A DNA stretch of 64,000 bases. Origin: Podocnemis expansa (Eukaryota > Chordata > Testudines > Podocnemididae). Location of the stretch: NCBI GenBank assembly GCA_007922195.1, contig ML682059.1, forward strand, positions 10,311,118 to 10,375,117, read 5' to 3'. The notes beneath the pieces are model-generated. The model saw only the letters and a list, made by a program, of their open reading frames with translations. It ran no database searches and was not told the origin of the DNA. Positions 13,006 through 40,825 of this stretch are shown here, in pieces; the first letter of the stretch is position 1, and each line of letters begins with the position of its first letter. Made by a program: the position numbers and the translations under genes.

Positions 13006-13009
13006 GGTG
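13006..13009. repeat. Left target-site duplication of the provirus
   Basis: ggtg directly before the 5' LTR, matched by ggtg at 31679-31682 directly after the 3' LTR. A 4-bp duplication is typical of gammaretroviruses and spumaviruses. Confidence 0.75.
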
Positions 13010-14634
13010 TGTAGCCTGAGATTTTTGCTATCTCTTTAGCATCACAGCAAACCTTGATTGAATAAAGGACACGTGGGTAGAAAACAGTGTAAGGTAATCT
13101 AATAGAAGTTCTAGTTAAAATAAAGCTGGAAACAGCATAATATGTAATAATCAGTAGTAAAGAATTCATAAATCATAATTTATCAATGTTTTAAACAAAG
13201 TTGGTATTAAAAGGGCATTCAGCAAGTGAAAATGGAGAGATCATAGGTTTAGCAGATTCCATAGGTATATCTCAGCAGATTCAACAGATAAATCTTTTGG
13301 AAAAGTAGGTCAAGATGGAGGAAGATTTTGAACTCACTCAGTCCCCCTCTAATCAAGGATTCTAAAGTGTCCACCCACTGTCAAAGGACCATCAAAAGTA
13401 TTGATTTTTGCTCAGGTGGCAGGTGAAATCACTCTTTTTTTCAATTGGGTGGAGATGAAATCACACCTTTGGGATTGGTCAAGAAGAAGATGGGAGTGAT
13501 AGAAGAGCAAATAAAAGGTGCTGCACAGAGCAGAACTTCAGAGATCTCTCTCCCACTCCTTACTGGGTTCCACTGGGCTCTGGCTATGTTCCCGCTGCAC
13601 TAAGGAGTCTCACTCACACTCATCCCTAGAGAGAGTGACAACTTCTCTAGTGGAAGCCTGGGAGCTGGGTCTTTAGACTTAGTCTCTGAAAGGCACGGGG
13701 CTGTATTTCTGAGCGGTGACTCAGGATACAGTCCTTGAGCTGAGTCTTTGGACTTAGTCTCAGAAGGGACTCCGATAAAACTCATAAGCAGGCAGCTATC
13801 TCAGTCCTGCGTACAGCTTGTGGGCAACGAACTGATACTTTTGTAGCTCCAGTTTCTGAGCAACTGCACGTGCAGGCGTTGAGCTGTGCCTAAGTTCCAG
13901 TTTCCATGGCAACCAGACCAGAGCTGAGCAGAGACTTAGAAAAGTTCCAGCCTGCAGCTGTGAGCCTCCATTTGAAGAAGCAGCACACCCTCTCCCAGAG
14001 AAAGAGACTCTGCCTTTTTCCTTCAAGTTTTGGGTAAGAAAAGGATCCTAAGGAGGGGAGGAAAACTAGTAGAAAGCCCCAAAGATCTTTAAATTATTTT
14101 AGTACTGTTAAGAAGCCTAAGCCTTACAATATAACTGTATGATTATAAGTAAACCACCTAGAAAGAGTGAGATAAGAAACCCAGATTAAGATCTAAAGGA
14201 GTAATAGTAAGAGTTGAGATCTCTCCATTTAGCAAGTGCCTGATCCCCACTTGCTGAATGTTCCTTTTGTCTACCTAAGTATTGTTTCTGTTATAATTGT
14301 ATAGAATAGTTTTAATATGTTATATTACTGTTGAGCTATCCGTGAAGCAAATATAAGTTCCCTGTCAGTTTTCGGAGTAGATATTGCAGTAAACCTGATT
14401 TTTGTCTTTCACAAATCATTGGCTCTAAGTCTTTTATTTGCTTCTGGTCTGTGCTTGATCGGCGGGCTGTAGCCGTATCCTCCACTCGGGACATTTATCC
14501 GGGGTGCCGGTATTTGTCCGTTTAGGTGAAAAATGGTCCCCCCTCGTTTCCCCTGAGGGTCTCCAAATTAAACTTCAGACTGAAGGACGGTCTGGAGATT
14601 AGTAAATTGATTGATTCAATTTTCTGGGGTAACA
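13010..14634 (+). repeat. 5' LTR of the provirus
   Basis: 1625 bases, TGTAGCC...TAACA, nearly identical to 30055-31678 with scattered substitutions and a few short indels (a few percent by eye). An A/T-rich TATA-like box (aaataaaagg, about 13509-13518) and a downstream initiator region suggest U3 ends near 13540. A gtaagaa at 14034 could be a splice donor within R/U5, as in foamy viruses. An AGTAAA near 14388 is a possible polyadenylation signal. AATAAA near 13057 and 13119 lies in U3. The length is near that of foamy-virus LTRs and well above the usual 300-800 bases. Confidence 0.95.
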
Positions 14635-14638
14635 GTTG

Positions 14639-14656
14639 TGGCGCCCGAACAGGGAC
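14639..14656 (+). promoter_or_regulatory. Primer binding site, tRNA-Lys3 type
   Basis: tggcgcccgaacagggac, four bases after the LTR end. This is the 18-base complement of the tRNA-Lys3 3' end known from lentiviruses and MMTV. It primes minus-strand DNA synthesis. Confidence 0.93.
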
Positions 14657-15822: not shown

Positions 15823-17345
15823 ATGTTGAGGGTACAGAAGCAAAAGGGTTGTGAAGTCAGCAAAAGTAATTCTGATAAAATGCTAGGAGATTTTGTGCAG
15901 AAAATAGGAAAAGGTCCATGGAAAGAAAATGCTTTTATGGGACCAGGAGCTTTCCAGCAATTATGTAAGCAATGGGATCAGTGGATCCAGGAAGATCAGA
16001 AAGGAATTTTCAAAGGAAAGCCTAGTAAAAAGGAAAGAAAAAGAGCTGCTATGCAAGGATTATATCTAGTAGCAGCCATTTTAGATAAAGAATCAGAAAA
16101 ACTAATAGCAGAAAAACAAAGAATGCAAAAAGAAAAAGATAGTAATATTAAACAGCTAAAGTATTTGGAAGCTGAGACTAGCAACCTAAGAACTGTTCTG
16201 TTAACACAATCTACTCAGCTAAGGATGTGCCAGAAAGAAATAGAAGAAGGAAAAGAGGAAATAGTTAGATTGCTCAAAGAAAATGAAAAATGGAAGAAGG
16301 TGGCTATGGACAGCCAAGCTGCTATAAGAGTAATGCTTTCAGATGCAGAAGAAAAAGGAAGGATAGACCATGCAGATTGTTTAAAGCAGATAGAAGCTCT
16401 AAAAAAGGAACTAAGAGTTAGTAAAGGAGTAATTTCAGTAGTGAAGGGCAATGCAAGTCATTGGAGGTATGAGGAAGTAGGAACAGATGAAAAAGAGTGG
16501 GAAGATATTGAGGAAGATTGTGAAAGGATACCACAGAAAGAAACCTTATATAGTGCTTCAAGAAAAGAGCTAAAGGAGCTTGATAAATCACCACCAGTAA
16601 TAACCACTAAAGTAACTAAGAAAACAAGAACGGGCAGAACAGGAGGAACAGAGGAATGAATAGAAGAAAGACCATATGCGCCTGAACAAATTAAAGCTCT
16701 AGGAAGAACCTTAGGAGTCTTAGATAAAAGTTCAGCAGTCAAATGGCTTTCCAGAAAAACAGGAATGCCAGGATTAACAGGAACAGATGTATCAGCCTTA
16801 ATTAAAGAATGTATGGGGATGGAAAACTTTGCAGGGCTTCCCTATGATATACAAGGTGGGGAAGAAAAGGATAAGGACATTGTAGAGATGGAAATTTTAA
16901 AGTTCTTCACCCTGGAGAAGACCCAGTTATATGGTTTCATAGGGAAAAGCAACAACCTGGAGAAAGACTTGAACCTTATATAACTAGGAAAAAGTTGGTA
17001 TATAAACATTCGGGTCTTGGAACCCCAAAAGAAGATGCAGAAAATCCATTTTTAGATTGGGGAGATCTTATTGATTATGATGTATTGCAATTTAGAAAAG
17101 CACTATTGCTAGGGTTTGTCCCCAGTATGAGAACTGCAATGATCTCTATGGATCTCTATGAAGACCCATTTAAGGGAGAGAGAGTACTTTTTGCTTTTTC
17201 CTCTATGAAATTCAAAGAGAAACTTGCCCTGCACCTAGGAAAAGAATTGAAAGGGTATCAACAGTAACCTTTTCAAATAATGGTCCACAAAAGAGAGAAC
17301 TTTCCACCTAGACAAGAAATGGCAGAAATGAAGGGTGGAACATAA
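15823..17345 (+). pseudogene. gag: Retroviral gag, interrupted
   Basis: The first 278 codons are open to a TGA at 16657. The same frame reopens to 16983, and a neighbouring frame then continues to 17267 and beyond, so there is at least one in-frame stop and one frameshift near 16900. N-terminal residues 1-80 are basic with conserved tryptophans (KGPWKEN, QWDQW). Residues 80-215 are a long glutamate/lysine-rich coiled coil. The later part (NPFLDWGDLIDYDVLQF ... FVPSMRTAMIS) looks like capsid. Near 17515-17545 a PTPSAPPLP stretch offers a PSAP late-domain motif for ESCRT recruitment. No CCHC zinc knuckle was found, unlike most orthoretroviral gags. A diverged copy of this gene lies at 38990-40640. 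Confidence 0.85.
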
Positions 17346-17582: not shown

Positions 17583-18104
17583 GTGTCAGCCAGAGAACAT
17601 GCTGACTTAGTGGCACATTTAGATCAAGATAGATGGGGAAGACCTACAGTTTATGTAGAGTTTAAACAGGGAGCGTTCGGACAAAACATGCTAATTGATA
17701 CACATGCCACTTTCTCATTAGTTAGTACTAGAAAGAAAAATTTATTTGGACCTCCGGTCATTGTTAGAAACCTGCAGGGATTTAACGAAGCAGAAAGTAA
17801 AGTTCCATTCAGCCCTGTAGTAAATTTTAGATTAGGAAACAGATCTGGAAAGGGACAATTCGGCCTAATAGAACTAGATGGAAATGGAATAATAGGAATA
17901 GATATTCTAAGAAATCTCAGACTTATAGTTGAGCTGGTGAACAAAACCTTATGGAACGTGTCCATAAGCCCGGAAGACACTGCCAAAGAATCTGTAATTA
18001 TAGAAGCAGGCTATAGGCTAGCTGCTGTAAAAGCAGCAGAAGTGAAATGGCCTGATTGGCCACAAGACATTCTAGAAATCGCTTTACAGCATAGAGAAGT
18101 GTAG
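17583..18104 (+). pseudogene. pro: Retroviral aspartic protease with altered active site
   Basis: Retropepsin-like domain in the frame that leads into reverse transcriptase. The substrate-side strand VYVEFKQGAFGQ is followed by the active-site segment LIDTHATFSLV, with the aspartate codon at 17697, and by GQFGLIELDGNGIIGIDIL, the hydrophobic-Gly-x-Asp end of the fold. The catalytic triplet should be Asp-Thr-Gly. Here the glycine codon is CAT (His, 17703), which should abolish activity. The related broken copy at 40765-40800 still has Thr-Gly at this position, so the change is probably post-integration. An amber TAG at 18102-18104 separates it in frame from RT. It would process Gag and Pol. 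This domain appears to be the parent of the five accessory ORFs downstream. Confidence 0.85.
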
Positions 18105-20256
18105 GTGAAAAACAAAGCAGAATGTGGGAAAATTAATGCAGAAGTTTTAATTACGAGACCTGATCCCCCACCTCAAAAACAATACAAATATCCCAAGGAA
18201 GCTGAAGAAAGTTTAGCAAAAACCATTCAGGGTCTGATAGATCAAGGAGTTGTAGTAGAAAAGCAAAGCAGAAATAATGCAGCTATTTGGCCAGTTCTGA
18301 AAGCAGATGGAAAAACATGGAGATTAACTATTGACTTTAGGCCTTTGAACAAGGTAACTCCAATAACTGCACTAGTTGTGGCCAAATATCCAGAAGTAAT
18401 GGCTTCTATAATAGGAGGAGCAAAATGGTTTACAGTGTTAGATCTGGCAAATGCATTCTTTTCCATACCATTACACCTGGAGTGTTGGTATAAATTTTCC
18501 TTTACTTTTCAAGGCAGACAACTGTGTTTCTGTTGAACTCCACAAGGGTTTCACTTGTCACCAACAATATGCCATATGCATGTGATCAAAATGTGGGATG
18601 ATATGCCCAAAAAGGATAATATCTCCTCGGTTGATGACATTCCGATTAGCACAAAACCCAGAGAAGAAAATTTAGAAATTCTAGATCAATTTCTGCAGAA
18701 AATAGAAGAAACAGGTTTCAAGGTTAGCCCTGAAAAAGCACAGATATGCCAACAGCAGGTAAACTATCTAGGAGTAACTCTGGGACAAGGACATTCACCA
18801 GATAAGCAGAGAGTAGAACTCCTACAGAAATTGCCAGCTCCTACAGACACTTCCACTCTGCGATCATTCTTAGGAATGATGAATTTTTCCCAGAGATTTT
18901 GTGGAAAATTATGCAGAAAAAGCTTCTCCATTATACAAGTTATTGAGGAAAGGTACCCAATGGGAATGGGGAACAGACCAACAAACAGCATTTACACCGT
19001 TGAAACAAGCACTAGCATAAGCTCCAGCTCTAGTATACCCAAAGGTAGAAAAACCTTTTGTGCTTCAATTAGCTACCACAGACACTGGAATGAGCGCAAT
19101 CCTTAGTCAGGATCATGGTACTGGGTTAAGACCTGTAGCTTATGCTTCTAAGAATCTCAACGGAGTTGAACAAGGTTTCACTCCCTGTGAGAAGGAAGTA
19201 TTAGCATTAGTGTGGGCTTTACAGCATTGGGAATATCTAGTTGGATTATCCCCAGTATTACCGAAAACCTCACACTCCCCTGTGAAATATGTGCTAACAG
19301 GAAAAATTAATGAAGGTCATGTATCCAGTCCTAGGTTAGCTAAATGGACATTAGCCCTACTAAACAAGAATGTAAGTATGGAGAAAGTTCCAGCTTTATC
19401 TCCAGTCCCTTATGGACTTATAATAGAAGGAGAACAACATGAATGTCCATTGCCAGAAATCCTTCGAGAAGGTCCTATATTATTCCAAGGAGGAACAAAA
19501 CTGCAGGAGGTAAAAGATCAGTTAGATGAGATTTGGTTTGTAGATGGATCAAGTTACTGCAAGGAAGGACAGCATTTCACTGGGTATGCAGCAGTTAGAA
19601 TCTCTGATGAAAGGGTCATAAAGGGACAATGTTTACCACATTCAGCTCAAGCAGCTGAAATAGTAGCTGTCATTGTAGTATTAGAAAATGTCCCAAAAGA
19701 TAAACAAGTTGTCATCTTCACAGATTCTGATTGGGTATTAAGAGCCATAGTAGATTGGATGCCTCATTGGCAGAAAAGGGGAATGAAATCAGCTGATGGC
19801 AAGCCCATAACTCATTCTGAAAAATTTATATACCTGTGGAACTTAGCTCAAATGAGATCACAACCAGTGTTAATGGGAAAAGTAAAAGCACATAGGAAAA
19901 ACACAGAAGAGGCTCAATGGAATAATAAAGCAGATGAGCAAGCTAACTTAGGAGCCAAGGAGGGGTTTCTCTGGAATCCCAAAATACAGTTCCAAACAGC
20001 CCCAATAGCTAGTATAGGAGAAGAACAAGTGGAGCAAGTTGATCTAATAGCATTGCAAAAGAAGGCTCCCAAAATAAAGAAACTAGTGGAAAAAGGAGAA
20101 TTTCATGGATGGCATGTTAAAAGGCATGAAACAGGACTAATACTAGCAGCTAAAACAGAGGAAGAAATCCCTATATGGGTAGTACCATCTGATCTTAGAA
20201 CAGAAATGATAGCCTTAGCACATGATCATGGACATTTTGGTGTAGATAAAACCTGA
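18105..20256 (+). pseudogene. pol: Retroviral reverse transcriptase and RNase H, multiply broken
   Basis: RT runs in frame with the protease to a TGA at 18534 and then on. Visible blocks: WPVLKADGKTWRLTIDFRPL, VLDLANAFFSIPL (catalytic block A, about 18438), TPQGFHLSPTI and SVDD (18627-18638). The last should be an aromatic-VDD motif, so its first position is lost. A frameshift lies near 18905 and a TAA at 19017. The 398-codon frame from 19060 holds the connection domain and a complete RNase H: WFVDGSSY, QAAEIVAV, IFTDSDWVLRAIV and the final NNKADEQA, giving the four acidic residues. It ends at TGA 20254 inside the integrase zinc finger. Together these domains copy viral RNA into DNA. It cannot be expressed as one protein. 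Confidence 0.9.
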
Positions 20257-21236
20257 GAGACTACAAATGGCAGGATGGTGGCCTAATATGAGATCAGATA
20301 TAGAGCAATATGTGAATAATTGTCTGCCTTGTGCAGCAAACAATGCAGGCCCTAAGATAGTAAAAGGAAAATTAGGACACCAAAGGATTGAAGGTCCGTG
20401 GTCAAGATTACAAATTGATTATATTGGTCCACTCGCGAATACTGCTAAGGGAAACAAGTACTGCTTAGTGATTGTCGATCCTTTCACTAAATGGGTAGAA
20501 ACAATTCCTACCAAGAATAACAGCGCTAACTGCTGCTAGGGTATTAGTAGATCAAGTCTTTTCCAGATGGGGAATTCCGAAAGAGAGAGATTCAGATCAA
20601 GGTCCGCACTTTGTAGGTAAAATAACGAAAGGACTGTGCCAAGCATTTGGAATTAAGCAAAGATTACACATAGCAGGACATCCACAAAGTTCAGGACAAG
20701 TAGAAAGAACGAACAGGACTATAAAGAATGCCTTAAAAAAAGTAGTAAATCTGCAAGGGAAAAATTGGGATCAAAAACTATCTTTAATATTAATGGCTAT
20801 TAGAGGAACAGTAGCATCTCATAGAGTGACACCATTGACAGGAAGAAACATGAGGTTGCCAGAACAATGGTGGTTAGTCGGAAACCCTACAGATGAAATA
20901 CAACCAAAAGTGCTAACAGACCACTGGATGCAACAACTCCTAAAACCCATTTCAGAAACTCATAAGCAGATAGCAATAGCCCTGAAAGCAAAAGCTTAGC
21001 AAATGGATCAGAAACTAGGACCAATTCTGCACCCACAAGAATGGCAAATAGGAGATAGGGTGATGTATAGACAGTTTAAAGAAAAGGACCATGTCTTATG
21101 TCCTGTATGGGAAGGCCCAGTTAAAATTGTCAATAAAGCAAGTCCCACTGTATATATGCTGGAGATTAAACGAGGAAAAAGAAAAATAGTCAAATGGTTC
21201 CATTCCTCTCAAATGAAAAAGTGGAAGGGAGAGTAA
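20221..21236 (+). pseudogene. pol: Retroviral integrase, frameshifted
   Basis: The HHCC zinc finger begins with HDHGHFG before the TGA at 20254 and continues in a shifted frame with CLPC (about 20322-20333). The catalytic core has its first aspartate in IDYIGP (20417), its second in DSDQGPHF (about 20595) and its glutamate in GQVERTNR (about 20703), so the D,D-35-E triad is present. A frameshift near 20525 and a stop at 20997 break the frame. The C-terminal part (PVWEGPVKIVNKASPTVYMLE, ending KKWKGE) is the SH3-like domain with a GPY/F-like module, as in gammaretroviral and class III integrases. It inserts viral DNA into the genome. Confidence 0.9.
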
Positions 21237-21298: not shown

Positions 21299-21321
21299 AT
21301 AGTTGGTTTTCATTTTTGTAG
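21299..21321 (+). promoter_or_regulatory. Splice-acceptor-like site before accessory ORF 1
   Basis: T-rich tract (gttggttttcatttttgtag) ending in AG at 21320-21321, with the ORF 1 ATG 5 bases later. It is the first of six such sites preceding the accessory ORFs and env. Confidence 0.6.
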
Positions 21322-21326
21322 GAAAT

Positions 21327-21776
21327 ATGGAGAGTGAAAGTGAAGAAAGTGGATATGAGAGTGGTATAGAAGAGAAGATCAGAATGAATTATTGGATGGA
21401 GAAATTGCAAGATTAATAGAGGACTTTGATCATAGATGGTTTACCATAGCAACAATACTAATAGAAGGAAGAATAAGAACTGTATTTTACTATAAATACA
21501 GGAGCAGCCTTTTCAATTTTAAACATTAATGGAATGTATGTTGATAATATAGTTACAGAGGAGGCTAGGTGGATTCATTCTTCATCAGGATGGAGAATGA
21601 TCCCAATAAGCATACCTCTAAAGGTGAACATAAGAACAAAAAGGTTGCTTGGAAATTTTGGGCTTATAGATTTGGGTCCACATCAGTATGGTGTTCTGGG
21701 GCTAGATGCAATCATGGCAATGAACTGTGTAATAGACTTTGGAAGGAGAAGGTTACTGGAAAGTACTAATGAATAG
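21327..21776 (+). pseudogene. Accessory ORF 1: protease-like protein retaining Thr-Gly in the active-site segment, frameshifted
   Basis: Starts with an acidic stretch (MESESEESGYESG). Two frameshifts, near 21385 and 21485, separate three readable segments. The middle one reads EIARLIEDFDHRWF, which parallels an RLIRD motif in accessory ORF 5. The third contains NTGAAFSIL, aligning with DTHATFSLV of the viral protease, and then NFGLIDLGPHQYGVLGLDAI, aligning with QFGLIELDGNGIIGIDIL. The spacing between the two motifs is also similar. I infer a duplicated protease domain with Asp changed to Asn. Function is unknown; a decoy or dominant-negative protease, or a scaffold, is possible. The splice-site-like sequence just upstream suggests expression from a spliced mRNA. 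Confidence 0.7.
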
Positions 21777-21842
21777 AAGTAGTGCATAAAAACAATAATA
21801 GATATAGGAAGTAATTAAGTTATTCTTGTAAAATTTAGAAAT

Positions 21843-22460
21843 ATGGCGGATTGGGTAGAGGAAGTAACCTCAATAGAAGAAGATGAGGTATTGAAAATGT
21901 TGGACCAGGGAAATACCACGCAAAGAGGTTTAGAAATTGAGCGGATTTTGTGACAAGAAGATCAGAACGAAAAACAAACCTCAAGTGATGAGTTGAGGAG
22001 GAACCTTCTCTTTGACATTAACGATACAAAAGAAGAAGAGACTCAGACAGAAGACGTTCCAACAGTCATGTTTATGGACAATAGATAAGTTGTTTTGCCA
22101 CTGTTAAAAGACCATCAGAACAGACCATTAGTAGTAATATATGTAAAAATGAGGGATAATGAAATGAGTCATATATGTTATATAGATCCTACACCATCAC
22201 ATTCTATAATCAATACCAAAAGTATGCCCCAGATTCTTTTGCACAGAACATATAAGAAAATTAAGATAGGAAAAATACCTGGAACAGTGGAAGTCACAAT
22301 TCCCATAACTGTACGGATAGGAAATAAGAGAGTAGAAAATGTTAAATTTGGATTAATTGAAATGGATGAAAGTCCATATGGAATATTGGGGATTGAAATC
22401 TTAAGAATGTTAAAGTGCTCAATTGATTTAGAAAAAGATGCCCTGGTCCAATTCCTCTAA
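21843..22460 (+). pseudogene. Accessory ORF 2: protease-like protein without catalytic triad, two in-frame stops
   Basis: One continuous 205-codon frame from ATG 21843, interrupted only by TGA (21951-21953) and TAA (22086-22088). The N-terminal 80 residues are acidic (WVEEVTSIEEDEV ... KEEETQTEDV). The C-terminal 120 residues look like a retropepsin fold: VVIYVKMRDNE, then YIDPTPSHSIIN at the active-site position, then VKFGLIEMDESPYGILGIEIL. The Asp is kept, but Thr-Gly is replaced by Pro-Thr, so it should be catalytically dead. A weak acceptor-like ttattcttgtaaaatttag ends 4 bases before the ATG. The frame between the stops is well preserved, suggesting recent decay. Confidence 0.75.
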
Positions 22461-22600
22461 AGATGGTGTATTTAAACTGAGAAGTAATTTTAAGTAGCTG
22501 TATTAGAAATCATAGTAACATAGGTATAAGTAGTGTGTAAAGTATATATGTAATATATGAAAGTAAGTAACGTGTTAGCTTATAGGTACATTGAGTAAAA

Positions 22601-23115
22601 ATGACTGAGCAAAGAAGAAAAGAACAGATAACTGAACATGTTCTTCCCGTAGCTGCTGAGGCAGAAGTAAATGGAGAGGCAATGTATCCACAGGAAGCCC
22701 AAATTGCAGAAGTGCACAATAATGTTTTAGAGCAACAAGATTGGGACCATGATCTAACTCTCATAGTGAGGCTAACCAGAGATTCCATCACAGGAAATCT
22801 TTTAGCCCCCATAACATTAATCTGTACAACCCATACAACCACTCAGTACTTCCAGTTAAGACCTAATTTGGCATATTCCATGATAAATCTAACAAGATGG
22901 GATATTCTCACCTCAAACAGCAGGATACATCAGAAATATGGGAAGGAGGAAAATTAGAATGTCACCCTGTTCAGATTAGAATTGGAAGGAAAATTATCTA
23001 TCATAGATTTAGAATGATAGCTTTACTCAATGTTACCTGTGGGCACTACTGGAAATGACATCTTAAGGAAAATACATGGAAATATAATAGATGGTGAAAG
23101 GTTAGAAATTAGATA
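22601..23115 (+). pseudogene. Accessory ORF 3: diverged protease-like protein, frameshifted
   Basis: Open for 118 codons from ATG 22601, after which a frameshift near 22935 moves the homology to another frame. The N-terminus is acidic and glutamine-rich (MTEQRRKEQ), followed by LEQQDWDHDLTLIVRLTRDS, which lines up with EREEWEENSDRIARLIRDP of ORF 5. RPNLAYSMIN occupies the active-site position. After the shift, HPVQIRIGRKIIYHRF matches HPIYTQIGRKGIYHRF of ORF 5, and a further shifted segment gives GNDILRK. There is no Asp-Thr-Gly. A gcttatag ends 15 bases before the ATG as an acceptor-like site. Confidence 0.65.
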
Positions 23116-23269
23116 ATTTTTAAGATAAAGCAGTTAAGCTCTTAATATACTTTAGAATCGTAAGATAAGTGAGGTATTCATTACTATTAATAGTTAGTTA
23201 TAATGTACATAGTAAAAGTTAAGATGGTAAGTTATTTTTAATTTTAGCATCAGACAGATAGAAAAAGAG

Positions 23270-23818
23270 ATGGCAGAAAGACAGAATGAATTAGACAGAC
23301 AGAGTGTAGAGCCAGAGATAATGGAAGCTCAAGAGGCAGGGAGAGAGGGACAGGACCAGGCAGCACTGCCACTGGAGGAAGGAATTATTAATGAAGAGGA
23401 ATTTGAGGCAGAAGATTGGGAGGCTGCTAGGGACCCGGTGGTTCAATTGTTTTGCAACGGGGTGGGGGCACTAACTGTCCCAGCAATATTAAATATGAGG
23501 GTCAAGTTTGCATGATTTTCTTCAATCTGGCCCTGAGCTCAACTCGATCCATCTTGAACGTGAACCAGCCCCCTATCGTGCCCCCACCCCCCTTTTGCTG
23601 GAATAAGCCGACTGTACCGGCCACCTGCCGGGGAACAGGCACAATTAATCCCTGTCAGCCATCCTATCCAAGTCCGCATCGGCTGAAAGCAAGTGAACCA
23701 TTGATTTGGTTTAATCAATGTGAACTCAAGTGTGCAAACAACTTTGGGCGAGGACCTGTTGGCAAAAATTAATGGAAGAATCAGAGATCTGGAAAGGCTA
23801 GAAATCAGGGAGGTTTAA
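23270..23818 (+). pseudogene. Accessory ORF 4: protease-like family member with several TGA stops
   Basis: From ATG 23270 the frame is open for 81 codons with a strongly acidic N-terminus (EEGIINEEEFEAEDWEAARDP). It then meets several stops, mostly TGA, but the same frame continues with recognisable family sequence: HPIQVRIG (about 23660), a FGLINV block and LGEDLLAKINGRI, ending LERLEIREV just before TAA near 23818. ORFs 3 and 5 have the matching LEIR and LEIQEA ends. A strong acceptor-like gttatttttaattttag ends 22 bases before the ATG. The middle part (23520-23640) is C-rich and unlike its neighbours. Confidence 0.6.
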
Positions 23819-23819
23819 T

Positions 23820-24140
23820 TTTGTTTTTTCAGTAAAGTTTCTTAAGCAAAGAACGGAGATATAAGTTTGTTTTAAAGATGGATTGATTTTAAGTTAATAG
23901 TATAAACATAGTATAGAATTATAGAAAATATGTAGTTGTTAGTAAGTATAAGTATAGGAATTAAAAAATATATTATTGTTAAATAGATACATATATAGGA
24001 AAAAAATTGTTAATAAATAAAAATATTAAATATATATAAAATTTTCTTTAGTATTGTTACTAAATATTTTTTGTTTATCAAAAAAAGCGTGTAGTCAGTT
24101 TCTTACTAAGTACGTAGAACAAAACAGGGAATAAAAGCCT
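23820..24140 (+). other. A/T-rich spacer between accessory ORFs 4 and 5
   Basis: Very A/T-rich, with long TA/AT stretches at 23930-24070 and no reading frame. Similar A/T-rich spacers separate the other accessory ORFs. It may hold splicing branch points. Confidence 0.5.
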
Positions 24141-24185
24141 TTTACATTTCCAATTTTAGCCAAATAAAAGAAAATAAAGAAAAGA

Positions 24186-24689
24186 ATGATAGTTGAGGAC
24201 AAGGAAATCCAAGTTGCAGATGAAGCAGAAATACCAGGAGATGAAGCAACACTACCAGTCAGAAAAGCACAAAGACAAATGCTTATCAATCTTATATTAG
24301 AGAGAGAAGAATGGGAGGAAAATTCCGATCGAATTGCAAGACTCATTAGGGATCCAAGTAATGGATGTGTGTTGATTTCTGTGATTTTAACACATTCTAA
24401 CTCAACACAGTTAGACTATTTCTATTTTATGCCCACTGCACCCCGATCTTTTATAAATCTAAGGAGAATGGAGACACTCCCACTGACTGCAGGTCAAATA
24501 CGGTTCCAACATACCAAAATAAATATAACCCATCCAATTTATACCCAAATTGGTAGAAAAGGTATTTACCATAGATTTGGCATAAAGTTTTGGCACTACT
24601 CTGCCTTCGGGATCATTGGAAAGGATATCCTAAGAGCCCTTAAAGCCTCAATTATTGATTTTGCTTGCTTGGAGATTCAAGAAGCATAA
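24186..24689 (+). CDS. Accessory ORF 5: intact 167-residue protease-fold-like protein
   Basis: The only accessory frame that is fully open. Residues 1-45 are acidic (MIVEDKEIQVADEAEIPGDE). Residues 60-80 hold EREEWEENSDRIARLIRDP. Residues 83-110 form hydrophobic strands leading to YFMPTAPRSFIN at the active-site position. Residues 115-160 contain HPIYTQIGRKGIYHRF and AFGIIGKDILRALKASIIDF, which parallels GIIGIDILRNL of the viral protease. The catalytic Asp-Thr-Gly is absent, so it is probably a non-enzymatic derivative. The acceptor-like site cttttacatttccaattttag ends 26 bases before the ATG. Homology to the protease rests mainly on the C-terminal Gly-x-Asp-Ile-Leu block and on the intermediate family members. 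Confidence 0.75.
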   Translation: MIVEDKEIQVADEAEIPGDEATLPVRKAQRQMLINLILEREEWEENSDRIARLIRDPSNGCVLISVILTHSNSTQLDYFYFMPTAPRSFINLRRMETLPLTAGQIRFQHTKINITHPIYTQIGRKGIYHRFGIKFWHYSAFGIIGKDILRALKASIIDFACLEIQEA

Positions 24690-24739: not shown

Positions 24740-26800
24740 TAACACTAATAAAAAATTCTCCTCTCACCCCTATGGATGGTATGTGTCATCCTCAGCCTCG
24801 GGTCCTCTACCAGAGGCCTGGGAGTTTGAGGGTCCTGCGCAGTATCTTAGCTGTTCCTAGCACTGCACTCTTCTGGACAGAGAGCTCTGATGTTGTTCCT
24901 GGGATCTGTTGGAGCCACTCTCCCAGCTTAGGAATCACAGCCCCAAGTGCTTCTACCACCACTGGGACCACTTTGGCCTTCACTTTCCACATCCTCTCTA
25001 GTTCCTCTTTCAGGCCCTGGTGCTTCTCCAGCTTCTCATACTCCTTCTTCCTGATGTTGCTGTCACTTGGCACTGCTACATCTATCACCACCGCTGTCTT
25101 CTGGTCCTTGTCTATTACCACGATGTCTGGTTGATTGGCCAGTACCTGCCTGTCTGTCTGGATCAGGAAGTCCCACAGAATCTTAGCCCTGTTATTCTCC
25201 ACGACCTTCTGTGGAATCTCCCATCTGGTCTTGGAAGGATCTAGCCCATACACTGTGCAGATGTTCCTGCACACAATGCCAGCTACTTGGTTGTGCCGTT
25301 CAATGTATGCTGTTCCTGCCTGCATCTTACATCCTGCCACTATGTGTTGGACTGTCTCTGAGGCCTCTCTGCACAGTCTGCACCTTGGGTCCTGTCTAGT
25401 GTGGTACACCCCTGCTTCAATGGATCTGGTGCTCAGTGCCTGTTCTTGTGCTGCTATGATCAGTGCTTCAGCACTGTCTTTTAGTCCAGCCTTTTCCAGC
25501 CACTGGTAGGATTTCCCAATGTCAGCCACCTCAGCTATCTGGCGATGGTACATCCCATGCAGGGTCTTGTCTTGCCATGGCATGTCTTCTGCTTGATCTT
25601 CCTCCCATGTCTGCTGCTGCCTCAGGCATTCTCTCAGCAGCTCATCTTTGGGTGCCATCTTACTGATGTACTCCTGGATGCTCTGGGTTTCATCCAGGAC
25701 AGTGGCTTTGACACTCACCAAACCCCGCCCTCCTTCTTTCCGGCTGGCGTACAGTCTCTGGGTGTTGGACTTGGGGTGGAAACCTCCGTACATTGTGAGG
25801 AGCTTCCGGGTCTTCACATCGGCAGCCTCCATATCCTCCTTTGGCCAGCTCACTATACCGGCAGGGTATCTGATGACTGGCAGGGTGTACCTGTTGATGG
25901 CGTGGATCTTGTTCTTCCCATTGAGCTGGCTCTTCAGGACCTGTCTTATCCTTTGGTGGTACTTGGATGTTGCTGTCTTCCTTGCCTCCTCATTGTGGTT
26001 CCCATGTGACTGTGGGATGCCAAGGTACTTGTAGCTGGTCTGTATGTCTGCTATGTGGCCTGCTGGTAGTTCCACCCCATCACTTGACTACCTTTCCTCT
26101 CTTTACTACCATCCAGCCACACTTCTCCAGTCTGAATGACATCCCAATATCCTCACTGTAGATCTGTGTCAGGTGGATTAACGAGTCGATGTCTCGTTCA
26201 TTCTTAGCATACAGCTTGATGTCATCCATGTAAAGGAGGTGGCTGATGGTAGTTCCACTCTTAAACTTGTATCCATATCCAGTCCTTGTGATTATCTGGC
26301 TGAGGGGGTTCAAGCCAATGCAGAACAGCAGCGGGGACAGCGCATCACCTTGGTATATGCCGCACTTGATAGCCACTTGTGCAAGCTGTCTTGAGTTGAC
26401 TTCCAGTGTTGTCTTCCACAGTCCCATTGAGTTCTTGAGGAAGGTCCTTAGTGTCCTGTTGACTTTGTATAGCGCCGGACATTCACAGATCCATGTGTGC
26501 GGCATTGAGTCGTAGGCTTTCCTGTAGTCAATCCAGGCTGTGCTCAGATTGGTCTGTCTAGACCTTGAGTCTTGGGCGACTGCTCTATCTATGAGCAACT
26601 GGTGTTTTGAGCCTCTGGTGGTGTTCCTAATGCCCTTCTGAGCTGTGCTCTTGTACTGGCCCATGTGGTCCTGTAGCTTGGCGGCTAGGATGCCTGATAG
26701 GACTTTCCATGTTGTGGGGAGGCAGGTTATTGGCCGGTAGTTGGATGGTGCTGTTCCCTTGTGGGGGGTTTTCATGATCAGCACTGTCCTTCCTTGTGTT
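24740..26800 (-). mobile_element. 5'-truncated R4/Dong-type LINE inserted into the provirus
   Basis: Minus-strand non-LTR element interrupting the spacer between accessory ORF 5 and env. The flanks are TAA-rich (actaataaaaa on the left, ataataataaaataac on the right), with taataaaa on both sides as a likely target duplication. Dong elements of this clade are known to insert into TAA repeats. The 5' end is cut within the reverse transcriptase. Confidence 0.8.
24807..26784 (-). pseudogene. R4/Dong-type reverse transcriptase with restriction-like endonuclease, frameshifted
   Basis: Read right to left. RT blocks: NYRPITCLP, WIDYRKAYDSMPH (first catalytic Asp), GIYQGDALSPLLFCIGLNPL and LLYMDDIKLYAK with the YMDD motif. 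A short indel near 26085 creates a stop after MVVKRGKVVK, and the other frame continues for 422 codons: thumb region, a cysteine-histidine finger (CRLCREASETVQHIVAGC) and PDIVVIDKDQKTAVVIDVAVP, the PD-(D/E)xK restriction-like endonuclease typical of R2/R4-group LINEs. There is no APE domain. The N-terminal DNA-binding part is missing by 5' truncation. The enzyme would nick its target and prime reverse transcription there. Confidence 0.88.
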
Positions 26801-26868: not shown

Positions 26869-26885
26869 AATTTAATGGATGGAAG

Positions 26886-29800
26886 ATGGAGTTATATTTG
26901 CATTGGCCTTTTTGGGTCTTTGCCTACTCGTGCTGCTGTTATGGTACTGTGAACAAGATAGCCCTGACTGCAACCATTGAATGGAGCAAACTAACTGAAG
27001 ATTCCAGTATTACACATGGAAGAATAGAAGAATGTACTTTCACACTCCCATCACTTCACAACACAAAAATCATAGCTTTTATGGGACCATAATAGAAAGT
27101 GTAACACTCTTAGCTCAAAACAACAGTTCATCTACACATGGTGCCCATAAATGTTTTCTGGAATTTAATAATGAAGAAAAAGGTTGGGTAAATATTGTAG
27201 GATCTAGTAGGGTATTGACACAACCTTTTAGTTGCACATGGGATGACACCAGAAAACAAGGGAAACTGATTGGTAAGGTGAATAGAGTAGGTTCTTGGCA
27301 GTGTGTTCTTAGTCAAAACTCTAGTATTATTGCTAGAGCATCCATTAAAAGAGTTACAAAAGAGAAAGTACAATCATTAGACAGGCAAGAAATGGTCACC
27401 AGCATTCAATGGATTGATTCTCCCACAACATGGATAGTAAATCAGGTTCAAGGTTGTGAATTCACAATTCAAAAAAGGCTAAGAAAGGAGATAGTAAAAA
27501 AGAATAAACCTTTTACCATAATGATGGGTACATTAGAAGCTATTACACAGAGGGACAATATACGAAATGTCGCTACACAACTCTCACATAAGTGTTCTCT
27601 CAAATTTGACACAGTAGAACGAGGAAGAATTTTAACACATCCACACTACTATTCTGCCCCTAAACCATCTACTTGTGGATGGGCTAATGACCTGAATAAA
27701 GGAAAAATATCAGGAGCAATGATTATACCATGACATTGGCAATGTGCTATCATAGAGGGACAAAATGTAGTGTCAAGATCAGAACAAAGAACAATCATGA
27801 TCGAAAAAGAATCTAGATGCAGAGTCATTGTTTGGTTTATTCCATTGTGGAATAAAGGAAATGTACAGGAGATACATATTCGATGGTATCATAATAGGCA
27901 TAACGATACTATACACACACTTAAGTTAGAAGATCCTGAAGGTAATCTTACCACACATACTTTTACGTGTCAAATGAACATAAGTATTATAACCAAAGAA
28001 GATGTAGCACAAGCTCACCCAGCAACGTATAAATGTTTTATTCATGAAAAGGAATGCCAAACGGGATCATATCAGCAAACATTATTTCATTATTATTGTG
28101 AAACAGATGTAAACATAATAAGACAAAGGAGCAGTGGAACATGGAAACTTATAGGTAAAGATTTCAGTTATACTTTTCCATTTACATGGGTACTCAAACC
28201 AACAGTAATGAATATTGGTCCTTACGTGGTAAAAGAAGATATTAGAAGACAGTTGATAATAGATGTGGCCTATTCACTTAAGAAAATAGTGTTAGATCTC
28301 ACACAAGTATTCTCTTTAAAACCTCAATGCCAAAACTATACCAAACCTTTAGAGGAAGGATGGAAAAGATGGATATACACCCAAGTTTTTCCAAGTACTA
28401 CTAAAGATAGAAAGAAGAGAAGCATGATGGAAACAGCTCTAGGAGGAGCAGGAACAGGATTGGGAATTTTGAATAGCATAGATGTAGAAATATTGGCAAA
28501 TAAATTGAGCAGGTTAGGACAACAATTGGGAAATTTGGCAAAACCATTACAAACCTCCTTAACAGAAATGAGCTCAAGTCAATATATAGCTGCCAAATTG
28601 CTTCCAGAATGGGAAAAGTCCCATAAAACTGATCATTTAACAATTTTGGATACAATTGAAACTTTGCAAAATAATGTATCCCTTGCATTAGCATGTATCC
28701 AAGCTCGAGCATGGATGCTTGATGTAATGAAAGATGCCATCGGAGATGGAATGAGTAGACAATTGCCACTAGAAATAAAAAGTGCAATTTGGAAGCATGT
28801 TTCAAAGTTTGAAACTGAATTACATGAATGGTGGAAAATGATCAACTTCACCTATAATCCCTATGAAAATCAAAGTACTGTATACATAGTAATGATCACC
28901 AAGGCTCAAGTTAAATGGATGTCTCCAGTAATTGGCTTAGGGATAAATTTAAACTCAACAGTAATGCAGCCAATGGGATATAAATTGTGGGCATTAAAAC
29001 AGGAAAACAGCTGGAAAACCATAGAACTTGAGGCTTGTGTTAAAGAATCAGACGGTGTCAGATATGTTTGTAATCAAAATGCTATTCAATCCTGTGATGT
29101 TTGTTTGAACAGGGAACAAGGAGAATGTTGTTATCAATTGAATCTGAGATCTTCCAATGAATCAATGATTGTATATGTTGGAAAAACTTGTATATGTATA
29201 AGAAGTTGGTGTACGTTGTTTAAAGTGAACTATGCTTATGATGTACATAATCCATATGAAAATCAATGTTTATGTAATATTACATCTTTAGTAGGGTGCG
29301 ATGTTGAATACAACTTACCCCCAATGGTTGATGAAGAAATTAAAGAAGAATACCAACTGTATGAACAAATTGATCAAGTTCCATTGGGACCAAATATCAC
29401 TACTGTCTGGAAATTGATAGAACACCCCGATTTGAAGAAAGAAGTGGAAAAGGTAAAAGAAACTGCTCAAAGTGTATTGCTCACCATATGGCATTCGGCT
29501 AAACAAACTGAACAAGTTATGGAAGGAGTCAAAGGAATCTCCCAACACAATTGGTGGAGAGTATTCATGGGATTGTCCCCCACAGCCACAAAATACTTAA
29601 ATGTTTTGTTACACCCAATGGTAATGTTATTAATGATGCAGATTGCCTTGGCTATTTCACTCCTAATATTAGTGTTCTGGATAAGACGAAAAATTAGCAA
29701 ATTGAAATTCCTATTGTGGCTATTGAGTGGCAAAATATATTGCCATTCCCCAACAAATTCACTTGACAGATCCTCGCGCATGGATCCGGATGGAAGAGAC

Positions 29801-29986
29801 TTGTGCCAGTACGAAGACATGATGGCTCGGTCTCCTAGCATGGAGAGCCTTGAGCGCAAACTGGACAAGAAACTCTATGAATGGATCCCAATGGAACTAC
29901 CACCTCATTATGAGAACATGATGATTCAATCTCCTTCGCTGGAGACTTTTAAACCAAAATTAAAAGAGCATCTTCCAGAGGATTAA
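26886..29986 (+). pseudogene. env: Retroviral envelope glycoprotein (SU-TM), broken in SU
   Basis: About 1030 codons in all, long for a retroviral Env. The start ATG at 26886 leads a hydrophobic signal-like segment; a second upstream ATG at 26875 is in another frame. A frameshift lies between about 27030 and 27090, and a TGA at 27731. The frame is then open for more than 740 codons to 29986. SU holds repeated Cys-rich blocks. A furin site RKKR (28409-28420) is followed by a glycine-rich fusion peptide (ALGGAGTGLGIL), a heptad region and, near 29100-29130, CLNREQGECC. A membrane helix (VMLLMMQIALAISLLILVFW, about 29618-29680) precedes a tail of about 95 residues with two YxxM-containing repeats. 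It would mediate attachment and membrane fusion. TM is intact, SU is not. Confidence 0.9.
29800..29965 (+). repeat. Duplicated YxxM segment in the Env cytoplasmic tail
   Basis: Two copies of a tail segment about 33 residues apart, YEDMMARSPSMESLERKL (from 29810) and YENMMIQSPSLETFKPKL (from 29909). Both keep Y-E-[DN]-M-M, then S-P-S and a terminal K-L. Confidence 0.85.
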
Positions 29987-30042: not shown

Positions 30043-30053
30043 AAGGAGGGGAA
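30043..30053 (+). promoter_or_regulatory. Polypurine tract
   Basis: aaggaggggaa immediately before the 3' LTR. It is the plus-strand primer for viral DNA synthesis. Confidence 0.9.
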
Positions 30054-30054
30054 T

Positions 30055-31678
30055 TGTAGCCTGAGATTTTTGCCATCTCTTTAGCATCACAGCAAACCTT
30101 GATTGAATAAGGACACATATGGGCAGAAAATAGTGTAAGGCAATCTAATAGAAGTTCTAGTTAAAATAAAGCTGGAAACAGCATAATATGTAATAATCAG
30201 TAATAAAGAATTCATAAATCATAATTTATCAATGTTTTAAACAAAGTTGGTATTAAAAGGGCATTCAGCAAGTGAAAATGGAGAGATCATAGGTTTAGCA
30301 GATTCCATAGGTATATCTCTATCAGCAGATTCAACAGATATATCTTTTGGAAAAGTAGGTCAAGATGGAGGAAGATTTTGAACTTTTGAACTCACTCAGT
30401 CCCCCTCTAATCAAGGATTCTAAAGTGTCCACCCACTGTCAAAGGACCATCAAAAGTATTGATTTTTGCTCAGGTGGCAGGTGAAATCACTCTTTTTTCA
30501 ATTGGGTGGAGATGAAATCACACCTTTGGGATTGGTCAAGAAGAAGATGGGAGTGGCAGAAGAGCGAATAAAAGGTTCTGCACATAGCAGAACTTTGGAG
30601 ATCTCTCCTACTCCTTACTGGGTTCCGGCTATGTTCCCGCTGCACTAAGGAGTCTCACTCACACTCATCCCTAGAGAGAGTGACAATGTCTCTAGTGAAA
30701 GCCTGGGAGCTGGGTCTTTAGACTTAGTCTCTGAAAGGCACGGGGCTGTATTTCTGAGCAGTGACTCAGGATTCAGGCCTTGAGCTGAGTCTTTGGACTT
30801 AGTCTTAGAAGGGCCTCCGATAAAACTCACAAGCAGGCAGCTAACTCAGTCCTGCGTACAGCTTGTGGGCAATGAACTGATACTTTGTAGCTCCAGTCTC
30901 TGAGCAACTGCACCTGCAAGCTTTGAGCTGTGCCTAAGTTCCAGTTTCCACAGCAACCAGACCAGAGCTGAGCAGAGACTTAGAAAAGTTCCAGCCTGCA
31001 GCTGTGAGCCTCCATTTGAAGAAGCAACACACCCTCTCCCAGAGAAAGAGACTCTGCCTTTTTCCTTCAAGTTTTGGGTAAGAAAAGGATCCTAAGGAGG
31101 GGAGGAAAACTAGTAGAAAGCCCCAAAGATCTTTAAATTATTTTAGTACTGCTAAGAAGCCTAAGCCTTACAATGTAACTGTATGATTATAAGTAAACCA
31201 CCTAGAAAGAGTGAGATAAGAAACCCAGATTAAGATCTAAAGGAGTAATAGTAAGAGTTGAGATCTCTCCATTTAGCAAGTGCCTGATCCCCACTTGCTG
31301 AATGTTCCTTTTGTCTACCTAAGTATTGTTTCTATGTTATAATTGTATAGAATAGTTTTAATATGTTATATTACTGTTGAGCTATCTGTGAAGCAAATAT
31401 AAGTTCCCTGTCAGTTTTCGGAGTAGATATTGCAGTAAACCTGATTTTGTCTTTCACAAATCATTGGCTCTAAGTCTTTTATTGCTTCTGGTCTGTGCTT
31501 GATCGGCGGGCTGTAGCCATATCCTCCACTCGGGACGTTTATCCCGGGCACCAGTATTTGTCCATTTAGGTGAAAAATGGTCCCCCCTCGTTTCCCCCGA
31601 GGGTCTCCAAATTAAACTTCAGACTGTGGGATGGTCTGGAGATTAGTAAATTGATCAATTTGATTTTCTGGGGTAACA
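30055..31678 (+). repeat. 3' LTR of the provirus
   Basis: 1624 bases matching the 5' LTR from TGTAGCC to TAACA, with scattered substitutions and small indels. It is followed by the ggtg target duplication at 31679-31682. Confidence 0.95.
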
Positions 31679-32143
31679 GGTGTGGTGTTCAAACTGATTA
31701 CTTTAAAGGCAAGGTAAGAGGGAACAGCATTTAACACAATCACAAAATACAAATACACTAACATAACACATACACTGTGTCTAGAACAGTATCAACAGGT
31801 AAGCAAAATAAGGAATAGTCTAATTCCTGTATAGTTAATACAATTGTAAGCTGCTACTTAGAGTGGTCCCAGAGTCTTCTATTCTTTCTCAACCACCAGT
31901 CCAGATGGAGTGTTGTCTTCAGTCTATGAAAGGTATCTTTTTCTTAATGTTACTTTTAGTTTTTTTGGACCTCCCTTTCCTCAGTTACCTTCTAATTTCT
32001 CACTATTATCCTTCCCTGACTACCTAAATAAATAATTGTGCGTCTCTCTCTTCTTGTGGTTCCCTTCATCGTAGCTCTCTTTTTCCTCTGCCCCCCCCCA
32101 AAAGAGAGACAGAAGAAGAGAGGGGAGAAAAAAAAGGTAGAGA
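31679..32143. other. Sequence between the provirus and the DIRS element
   Basis: No gene is recognised. A C/A-rich and G/A-rich stretch occurs at 32085-32135. It may include the 5' terminal part of the following DIRS element, but I cannot identify its left repeat. Confidence 0.35.
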
Positions 32144-38490: not shown

Positions 38491-38989
38491 ATTTTCTTTC
38501 AGTGAATAGGCTATAGAGTGGCTGGTTGGGCACCATGGGATTGAAACTACCCTGGAAGACAGGCTGGATAATCAAGAACTGGGTGGCAGATTAAAAGGTC
38601 AAAATGAATCAGGTGCCATAGAAAGTAGCAGGTTAAAAGCCAAAATGTGAAAAATAAATATAGGGCTGCAGAAGATTTACTATGTGTTAATTTGAAACAC
38701 CTTCATGAATAGTAGAGTTGCTTTCCAAATACTGAGACAAGAATCATAGCTTTGGAAAACTCATGTAGTAAAAAAACCTCTGGTTTTATTTCAAAGTTAC
38801 CTTAGGTACTAAGGGAAAATACAGTAATTCTGATGGATTTCAGGTAAGGACCTAGTTGAAGATCTCAAATTAAGGTGCAGCAGGTGCTGTTTGATTTTTT
38901 TATGTAATATCTAGGATGGATTTCCCAACAAAGCTTAGGAAAGAGTGCCTTTGTGTACTACAGCATATTGGGAAAGGAAAAACAAAACT
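38491..38989. other. Unassigned sequence before the second retroviral copy
   Basis: AT-rich. It may be the decayed leader of the second provirus copy but no alignment to the first copy was convincing. No gene is seen. Confidence 0.3.
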
Positions 38990-39804
38990 AAGTAACACCT
39001 CAGGAATTATGTTAGGAGATAACAGATTAAAATATTTTGTTGAAAAAATAATATAGGATCCATGGAAGGAAAGTGTATTGGACCTTGTGCCTACCAGCAG
39101 CTATGAAGCCAATCGTTTCAGTCAGGAAGGAAAAGAATTTTCTCAGGAATACCCACAAAAAAGGAGAAAAAGTAAGGTGCCATGCAAGTATTACATATCA
39201 CAGTACTTCTTTTAGATAAAGAAATATGAAAATCAGTAGTAAAGACAAGGAGTAAAAGAAAAGGATAAAACTAGTGAGGAACTAAATAGTGCAAAAGCTG
39301 AGGCAGGTGCATTAAAAACCACCATGTTAAGACAAACAACTCAGTTAATCACTTTCCAGACTGAGTCAGATGAAAGGAAGGAGATGTAAGAGAATGATAC
39401 AGGAAATGGAAGTAAAGGGCAATAGCCACTGAAGTTGCAGTGAGAGCAATACTCTTGGATTCAGAAGAAATGGGAAAAAATAAATCATGCAGCATGCTTA
39501 AGAAGAACTAACATTAAACAAAGGTGTAGTAGCAGCGGTTAAATGTAACTGTGATCGGTGGGACAATGAATAAATAGAATTAGAAGATTGGGATAACTTC
39601 ATGGTTATCTAAAAGAAAAAACTTTCCACAGGACCTTACAGCTTTTTAAGGGAAGAACTACAGAGACCTCCCCCTGTACCACCAATAATGACACCCATGG
39701 TCACTAAGACTACTGAGGCAGGTAATGCAAGAGGGACAGAACTACACAGAGAGGAAGGCCTTATTCCCCTGAACAGATAAGAGCTTTAGGAAAATCTATG
39801 GGTC

Positions 39805-40759: not shown

Positions 40760-40820
40760 AGGTACCACTTTCTCATTAGTTAGTACTAGGAGAAAAATCT
40801 ATTTGGACCTCCGGTAGTGA
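40760..40820 (+). pseudogene. Protease fragment of the old provirus (left half)
   Basis: Reads NTGTTFSLVSTR in one frame, followed by sequence for a LFGPPV-like block. It keeps the Thr-Gly that the younger copy has lost. It is cut by the solo LTR and resumes at 42289. Confidence 0.75.
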
Positions 40821-40825
40821 CAAGC

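What the first reader, a model, noticed from the sequence alone, without database searches (positions are those of the whole stretch)
21327..24689. Array of five protease-derived accessory ORFs between pol and env
Five consecutive ORFs share one architecture: an acidic N-terminus, an [E/D]-W....RL.RD segment in several of them, a strand leading to a former active-site position, and a C-terminal FGL[I]...G[I/V][L/I]G.[D/E][I/A] block. Compare the true protease DTHATFSLV ... GIIGIDIL with ORF1 NTGAAFSIL ... GVLGLDAI, ORF2 DPTPSHSII ... GILGIEIL, ORF3 RPNLAYSMI ... GNDIL and ORF5 MPTAPRSFI ... GIIGKDIL. I know of no described retrovirus with a serial duplication of retropepsin turned into accessory genes. 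Possible roles are dominant-negative dimer partners that delay Gag processing, capsid/assembly scaffolds, or host-factor antagonists.
Basis: partly seen in the sequence, partly recalled or inferred. Interest (0 to 1): 0.9.

Follow-up and report, generated by a model that had tools for sequence, protein, structure and literature searches.

The report
Dead-protease accessory genes in ancient retrovirus
An old retrovirus buried in what looks like a reptile genome carries, between its polymerase and envelope genes, five tandem relatives of its own protease that have mostly lost the cutting site, apparently a viral accessory-gene family grown out of a viral enzyme.

Summary
A provirus with 1.62-kb LTRs (13010-14634, 30055-31678; K2P 0.035) carries five tandem units at 21327-24689 related to each other and to its protease (PR, 17583-18104). 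A profile built only from units finds PR at E=1.6e-5 among 2676 six-frame fragments; 0 of 100 column-shuffled profiles do. Shuffle p-values: PR-U2 6e-10, U1-U2 3e-9, U2-U5 1e-10, U3-U5 1e-12; lowest of 20 control pairs 0.049. A joint PR+units profile hits 13 PDB sequences, 11 named as retropepsin-type and two by recall. Only U5 is an intact full-length ORF. DTGA has become DPTP (U2), RPNL (U3), MPTA (U5), NTGA (U1); the proline shared by three units suggests loss of catalysis before insertion. Splice-acceptor-like sites precede the ATGs more than chance (P=0.004), though unevenly. Structure prediction failed (pLDDT 38-42) and no relative of the units was found, so fold, distribution and function are unproven. 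Best reading: a retroviral accessory-gene family made of catalytically dead retropepsin domains, probably binding proteins.

The parts
13006..13009 (+). 5' copy of the 4-bp target-site duplication (GGTG)
   Evidence: read; same 4 bases at 31679-31682
13010..14634 (+). 5' LTR, TG...CA, 1625 bp
   Evidence: exact ends read by eye
14639..14656 (+). primer-binding site, tRNA-Lys type (identity of the tRNA recalled)
   Evidence: sequence printed
15823..17267 (+). gag-like region (coiled-coil ORF 15823-16659, then 16765-16983 and 16995-17267), interrupted; gag assigned by position
   Evidence: a relative of the first ORF lies at 38973-39741
17583..18104 (+). PR, the protease domain of pol; active site DTHA in this copy, DTGA in relatives P0001 and P0002
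   Evidence: PR alone has no retropepsin hit in Pfam or PDB
18105..21236 (+). RT, RNase H and integrase, interrupted; N-terminal RT piece closest to foamy virus RT among PDB chains (virus names recalled)
21321..21321 (+). last base of the strong splice-acceptor-like site just before the U1 ATG (best of 317 AG sites)
21327..21776 (+). U1: acidic start, RLIED segment in another frame, NTGAAFSIL, GVLGLDAI block (21477-21776 open)
21843..22460 (+). U2: ATG, acidic N-terminus with two stops, then open retropepsin-like domain 22089-22457 (DPTP)
22601..23116 (+). U3: N-terminal half open (22601-22957, RPNL), C-terminal block after in-frame stops
23270..23818 (+). U4: N-terminal part open (23270-23515), C-terminal block 23564-23815 broken
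24159..24159 (+). last base of the splice-acceptor-like site 27 nt before the U5 ATG (rank 11 of 317)
24186..24689 (+). U5: intact 167-aa ORF, acidic N-terminus, EEW, RLIRD, MPTA, GIIGKDIL
24807..26784 (-). later insertion of a non-LTR retrotransposon between U5 and env; not part of the virus
   Evidence: composition differs
26886..29986 (+). env, interrupted, assigned by position and anatomy; acceptor-like tract ends at 26868 (by eye; ATGs at 26875, 26879 and 26886)
30045..30053 (+). polypurine tract next to the 3' LTR
   Evidence: sequences
30055..31678 (+). 3' LTR, 1624 bp
31679..31682 (+). 3' copy of the target-site duplication (GGTG)

Best explanation
The retrovirus that left this provirus carried a family of small accessory genes made by serial duplication of its own protease domain. 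Each unit was a separate gene: its own ATG, an acidic N-terminal extension, then a retropepsin-like domain without the PR-RT linker. Most likely each was made from its own spliced mRNA. At least U2, U3 and U5 had lost the catalytic motif before insertion, so they worked as binding proteins, not as enzymes. I think it most likely (about 0.45) that they bound host proteins, diversifying like other retroviral accessory paralogs; regulation of PR by mixed dimers is second (about 0.2). Shown: relatedness, order, absence of DTG, provirus context. Inferred: spliced expression, loss before insertion, protein function. Not shown: fold, partner, activity.
For: Similarity (Gumbel fits to 400 shuffles): U2 to PR p=6e-10, U1-U2 3e-9, U2-U5 1.4e-10, U3n-U5 1.1e-12, U4n-U5 3e-4, U1 to PR relative P0001 3e-8. 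A profile of units alone finds PR at 1.6e-5, and a PR-family profile finds U2 at 2.1e-6 and U1 at 1.1e-3, among 2676 fragments; 0 of 100 column-shuffled profiles reach that, best PR E-value 22. U2's three best Pfam matches of four are retropepsin families, best RVP E=0.0039. The joint PR+units profile has 13 PDB matches up to E=10, best 0.0097: 11 named DDI1/DDI2, ASPRV1 or EIAV protease, and two (7efy, 7d66) DDI1-type by recall. Virus-like A-rich composition: 37.5% A in the array, 36-41% in gag, PR, RT-IN and env, 28-30% in LTRs and flanks. The third longest ATG ORF (103 codons, part of U2) exceeds that of all 1000 shuffles. Third codon positions are near random identity (0.31) while first and second are 0.50 and 0.60, pooled over 505 aligned codons. 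Acceptor-like scores before the five ATGs: P=0.0036 against other ATGs.
Against: One provirus copy only; no relative of U2 or U5 was found in the collections searched. Four of five units are interrupted in this copy. AlphaFold models have pLDDT 38.0 and 41.9 and their Foldseek lists (50 of 230 rows and 5 of 5 rows shown) hold no retropepsin. U2's RVP score (17.9 bits) is below the curated cut-off (20.7); U1, U3, U4, U5 and even PR have no retropepsin hit in Pfam, and PR alone none in the PDB. The units-only profile's best PDB hit is an unrelated dehydrogenase (0.84), DDI1 second (0.96). Acceptor scores of U2 and U3 are ordinary (ranks 49 and 28 of 317), and five of the six best AG sites do not precede a unit ATG. 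The codon-position contrast is partly built in, since codons were aligned by protein similarity. The longest ORF is matched or exceeded in 1 of 1000 shuffles, the antisense strand also has ORFs of 100 and 83 codons, and the fourth longest sense ORF (86) is an off-frame one overlapping U4.
Confidence: 0.6

Rival explanations
1. The units are dominant-negative or regulatory partners of the virus's own PR: they pair with PR monomers (in Gag-Pol or free) and delay or tune maturation. (A different function for the same gene family, so not exclusive of the main reading's ancestry.)
For: Same domain and the C-terminal GI(I/L)G.(D/E)IL block kept. U1 has NTG, which resembles the classical inactive Asp-to-Asn form (recalled).
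Against: U2, U3 and U5 lost the Thr of DTG as well, which in known retropepsins helps hold the dimer (recalled). Five strongly diverged copies are more than one regulator needs (judgement). U1's Asn could be a single post-insertion base change.
Confidence: 0.2
2. Non-functional by-products: reverse-transcription errors duplicated PR, and the copies decayed without ever having a role.
For: Four of five units are interrupted; serial duplications by template switching are common in retroviruses (recalled).
Against: Units keep open stretches, ATGs and core pattern at about 25-35% protein identity with third positions near random; a copy without function should have lost its ORF or been deleted in the virus before such divergence. 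LTR divergence is only 0.035, so nearly all unit divergence predates insertion.
Confidence: 0.1
3. The units come from another retropepsin source, such as a captured host DDI/ASPRV1-type gene or another virus's protease, and then multiplied.
For: PDB hits of U2 are mostly DDI1-type, E 0.066-0.27; host gene capture between pol and env is documented in crocodilian ERVs (PMC4299795: outline with abstract, found passages and section 15 read).
Against: Per comparison, units fit this virus's PR better than DDI1: A4 to PR 1.6e-5 in 2676 fragments against 0.96 in 177635 sequences. Divergence is deep, so another retroviral PR is not excluded.
Confidence: 0.15
4. The region downstream of integrase is a decayed dUTPase domain, as in ERV3-type elements.
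For: Position: some crocodilian ERV3 groups have dUTPase downstream of integrase (PMC4299795, passages).
Against: No dUTPase match for the open part of any unit at E<=1, while U2's top match is retroviral protease.
Confidence: 0.01

Closest known systems
Retropepsin domain (Pfam RVP; DDI1, ASPRV1, retroviral PR)
   Same: Sequence pattern of the domain core, above all the GI(I/L)G.(D/E)IL block
   Different: Catalytic D-T-G absent in U2, U3 and U5; stand-alone ORFs with an acidic N-terminal extension and no RT behind them
Snakehead retrovirus (SnRV) and Ovex1-like endogenous retroviruses
   Same: Ovex1 PR motif MLIDTGASYSIL resembles MLIDTHATFSLV; Ovex1 Gag has no zinc finger, and none was hit in the three gag ORFs here; Ovex1 RT resembles foamy and fish virus RTs (PMC2717909, passages), as the RT piece here resembles foamy RT. 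SnRV has several small ORFs from spliced mRNAs (PMC12193657, passages)
   Different: Ovex1 is reported to have no obvious accessory ORFs; no protease-like accessory ORF was seen in the passages read for either. SnRV sequences were not compared
CrocERV29 KIT-ligand insertion between pol and env
   Different: There a host gene was captured; here a viral domain seems to have been multiplied five times
Accessory paralogs: lentiviral Vpr/Vpx (recalled), walleye virus orfA/orfB (named in PMC4299795)
   Same: Accessory paralogs that diverge
   Different: None is known to me to derive from a viral enzyme

Membership tests
Active retropepsin (aspartic protease) | Sequence similarity to the family | tested here: met
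   U2 RVP E=0.0039, though below the curated bit cut-off; joint profile 13 PDB hits, 11 named retropepsin-type and two by recall; other units through U2, PR and U5. U1, U3, U4 and U5 have no Pfam retropepsin hit of their own
Active retropepsin (aspartic protease) | Catalytic D-(T/S)-G | tested here: not met
   U1 NTG, U2 DPT, U3 RPN, U5 MPT; none recognised in U4. Filed as retropepsin-derived, not as proteases
Active retropepsin (aspartic protease) | Retropepsin fold and dimer | tested here: inconclusive
   models of pLDDT 38.0 and 41.9, no useful fold match
Retroviridae provirus | Paired LTRs, target duplication, primer site, polypurine tract, gag-pol-env | tested here: met
   gag and env assigned by position and anatomy only (no retroviral match)
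SnRV/Ovex1-like clade | Place in a pol tree | not tested
   no reference set of retroviral pol sequences at hand; only motif resemblance to printed Ovex1 motifs
Retroviral accessory genes | Separate ORFs from spliced subgenomic mRNAs | tested here: inconclusive
   acceptor-like sites P=0.0036 overall, strong for U1, moderate for U4 and U5, weak for U2 and U3; no RNA data
ERV3-type dUTPase | dUTPase domain downstream of integrase | tested here: not met
   open parts of the five units

The most novel reading that the evidence does not exclude
A retrovirus lineage built a five-member accessory gene family out of its own protease by serial duplication, switched off catalysis, and expressed each dead protease from its own spliced message as a separate binding protein: a viral enzyme turned into an accessory-gene nursery.
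Probability: 0.6. Interest if true: 0.85.

Novelty: new variant of a known kind. Interest (0 to 1): 0.73.

Why it matters
Many retroviral accessory genes have no traceable origin (recalled). Here the likely parent gene is in the same provirus, with several stages side by side: PR with its motif nearly intact, U1 with NTG, U2 with DPT, U3 and U5 fully changed. If relatives confirm it, this would show how accessory genes can be born from a viral enzyme, and it makes the retropepsin fold a candidate scaffold for host-directed viral factors. I saw no such case in the listings of the ten searches (open-licence papers only; some listings capped).

Tried and rejected
Structure prediction of U2 and U5 gave low-confidence models, probably for want of relatives; the Foldseek searches are therefore not used as evidence either way. 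PR itself was not folded, so there is no positive control for that failure. Protein search with U5: 23 candidates, none significant; PR: P0001 only, of 39 candidates; joint profile A2: P0001 and P0002, both PR-like, of 4538 candidates at E<=10. Viral contigs: RNase H region, env, PR profile, U2 and U5 gave no relative; bacterial and archaeal genomes, searched with the PR profile only, none. These collections are poor places for a vertebrate ERV. PR alone against the PDB: two hits, both NADH dehydrogenase subunits; PR-family profile: ten hits at E 0.75-1.7, nine of them retropepsin-type. NCBIfam gave nothing relevant. dUTPase origin rejected. Gag origin of the N-terminal parts: control p 0.049 (U2) and 0.081 (U5), not convincing. 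The tree of seven pieces groups the three PR sequences (100/98) and U3 with U5 (92/96, midpoint root), but two of four inner branches are open and two rows are under half filled; order of duplication is not settled. Rfam and tRNA scans found nothing. The promoter scan and the annotated phage, plasmid and E. coli collections were not used.
Full report
Setting. The array lies inside one provirus. LTRs at 13010-14634 and 30055-31678 start TGTAGCC and end AACA, and are flanked by the same four bases (GGTG). A tRNA-Lys-type primer site (identity recalled) follows the first LTR, and a purine tract precedes the second. The LTRs differ by 55 substitutions in 1609 columns, K2P 0.035, with 11 gap openings. 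RT, RNase H and integrase pieces are recognised by Pfam. The N-terminal RT piece fits foamy virus RT best among PDB chains (60 of 204 matches shown), while the RNase H piece fits murine leukaemia virus-type chains best (virus names of the chains recalled). No clade was assigned by a tree. Gag and env are assigned by position; neither has a retroviral match. A non-LTR retrotransposon lies in reverse orientation at 24807-26784, between the array and env; its composition (17% A on the + strand) is unlike the virus.

The observation. Three-frame translation shows five units at 21327-24689, all on the + strand. Pairwise shuffle tests used ten stop-free sequences (nine window pieces and P0001): 17 of 45 pairs reach p<0.02, and 12 are printed at or below 0.001. 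Apart from PR-P0001 (1.7e-46), the strongest are U3n-U5 1.1e-12, U2-U5 1.4e-10, PR-U2 6e-10 and U1-U2 2.8e-9. These are Gumbel fits to 400 shuffles. In 20 control pairs with gag, RNase H and env ORFs the lowest p is 0.049. tblastn of U5 against the window finds the U3 region at 5.9e-13, U2 at 1.5e-7 and the U4 region at 2.7e-7; PR finds U2 at 1.4e-6. These E-values were made without composition correction or low-complexity filter.

Link to the protease. A profile of U1, U2, U3n and U5 only (A4) ranks PR first among sequences not used to build it, E=1.6e-5 of 2676 fragments, and next finds pieces of U4 and U3 (0.0041, 0.023, 0.26). A profile of PR, P0001 and P0002 only (A5) finds U2 (2.1e-6), U1 (1.1e-3) and, not significantly, U5 (0.14), besides pieces of the second provirus. 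In 100 column-shuffled versions of A4 the best E-value for PR was 22, and the best for any fragment 0.069. Against outside families: U2 alone matches RVP (0.0039), Asp_protease_2 (0.011) and gag-asp_proteas (0.013), all below curated cut-offs; U1, U3, U4, U5 and PR have no such hit. In the PDB, U2 alone has four hits at E 0.066-0.83, two named DDI1/DDI2, one (7efy, the best) DDI1-type by recall, one unrelated. PR alone has two, both unrelated. The units-only profile has two, an unrelated dehydrogenase at 0.84 and DDI1 at 0.96. The PR-family profile has ten at 0.75-1.7, nine of them retropepsin-type. PR plus units has 13 at 0.0097-0.77: 11 named DDI1/DDI2, ASPRV1 or EIAV protease, two DDI1-type by recall. 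So no single sequence proves the family; the joint profile does so fairly well, and only together with the internal links.

Loss of catalysis. Relatives of PR found in public data have DTGA. The units read NTGA, DPTP, RPNL and MPTA, with proline codons CCT, CCT, CCC at the Thr position of U2, U3 and U5. With about 1.8% substitution per LTR copy since insertion, roughly 4-5% of residues should have changed (hand arithmetic), so two or three changes out of three in each of three units, with a shared proline, are very unlikely to be later decay. One result is against this tidy picture: PR itself has DTH, and Gly to His (CAT) needs two base changes, so a rare double change did occur in PR, before or after insertion. 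U1's Asn may be later decay. The window's second, related fragment reads NTGT.

Were they genes? The array shares the A-rich composition of gag, pol and env (37.5% A). The third longest ATG ORF (103 codons, part of U2) exceeds that of all 1000 dinucleotide shuffles; the fourth (86) does so too, but it is an off-frame ORF overlapping U4; the longest (167, U5) is matched or exceeded in 1 of 1000. The antisense strand has ORFs of 100 and 83 codons, so length alone is not decisive. Pooled over seven overlapping pairs and 505 aligned codons, identity by codon position is 0.50, 0.60, 0.31; the third position is close to the random expectation (0.26-0.37 against 0.27-0.32 per pair). Since codons were paired by protein alignment, positions 1 and 2 are raised by construction; the informative part is that synonymous sites look saturated while protein similarity persists. 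All five ATGs have a purine at -3, which is not rare in A-rich sequence. Each is the first ATG after an acceptor-like AG (read), and the mean acceptor score before the five ATGs exceeds that of random sets of five from 68 other ATGs with P=0.0036; U1 ranks 1, U5 11, U4 13, U3 28 and U2 49 of 317 AG sites, and five of the six best sites do not precede a unit ATG. An acceptor-like tract also ends at 26868 before env (by eye).

Mechanism. Shown: a tandem family related to PR, with the catalytic motif absent in at least three members, in an LTR-bounded provirus. Inferred: separate proteins from spliced mRNAs, loss before insertion, constraint in the living virus. Proposed: binding proteins. I favour host partners, since five copies at about 25-35% identity suit diversification; this is judgement, not data. 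A PR-dimer role remains possible, most of all for U1.

What failed. AlphaFold models of U2 and U5 are of low confidence (38.0, 41.9), so the fold is untested. No relative of the units was found. The window's own genome could not be searched. Whether other proviruses carry the array is the main open question.

Literature. Ten searches of open-licence papers showed, in their listings, no retrovirus with protease-derived accessory genes; others (15 of 85; 10 of 29) were capped lists. Read: PMC4299795 (outline with abstract, found passages, section 15), PMC2717909, PMC12193657, PMC6001957 and PMC4977317 (found passages only). Subscription papers and Repbase were not searched, so 'not described' is provisional.

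Noticed in passing
38973-42640: Remains of a second, related provirus on the + strand: gag-like and PR pieces (PR 53% identical over 113 residues), PR split by about 1.4 kb of other DNA; active site NTGT.
   Followed up: partly
27032-27808: The N-terminal part of env contains an internal repeat (22.6% identity over 106 residues, E=9.7e-9 without composition correction), so the surface protein may also have grown by domain duplication.
   Followed up: no
17694-17708: The PR active site of this copy is DTHA; Gly to His needs two base changes.
   Followed up: partly
24807-26784: Non-LTR retrotransposon in reverse orientation with RT and zf-RVT matches inserted between U5 and env.
   Followed up: partly
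49992-52946: Minus-strand ORFs that look like a DIRS-type retrotransposon (judged by eye).
   Followed up: no
1-1399 and 53054-54450: Inverted copies about 1.4 kb long, 93-97% complementary; the second overlaps CR1-like LINE ORFs (53036-55800, judged by eye).
   Followed up: no
40065-40136, 58265-58336, 60384-60455: Dispersed 72-nt repeat, 83% identical, resembling a reptile SINE tail (recalled); with the LINE and DIRS look, the only hint to the host seen here.
   Followed up: no
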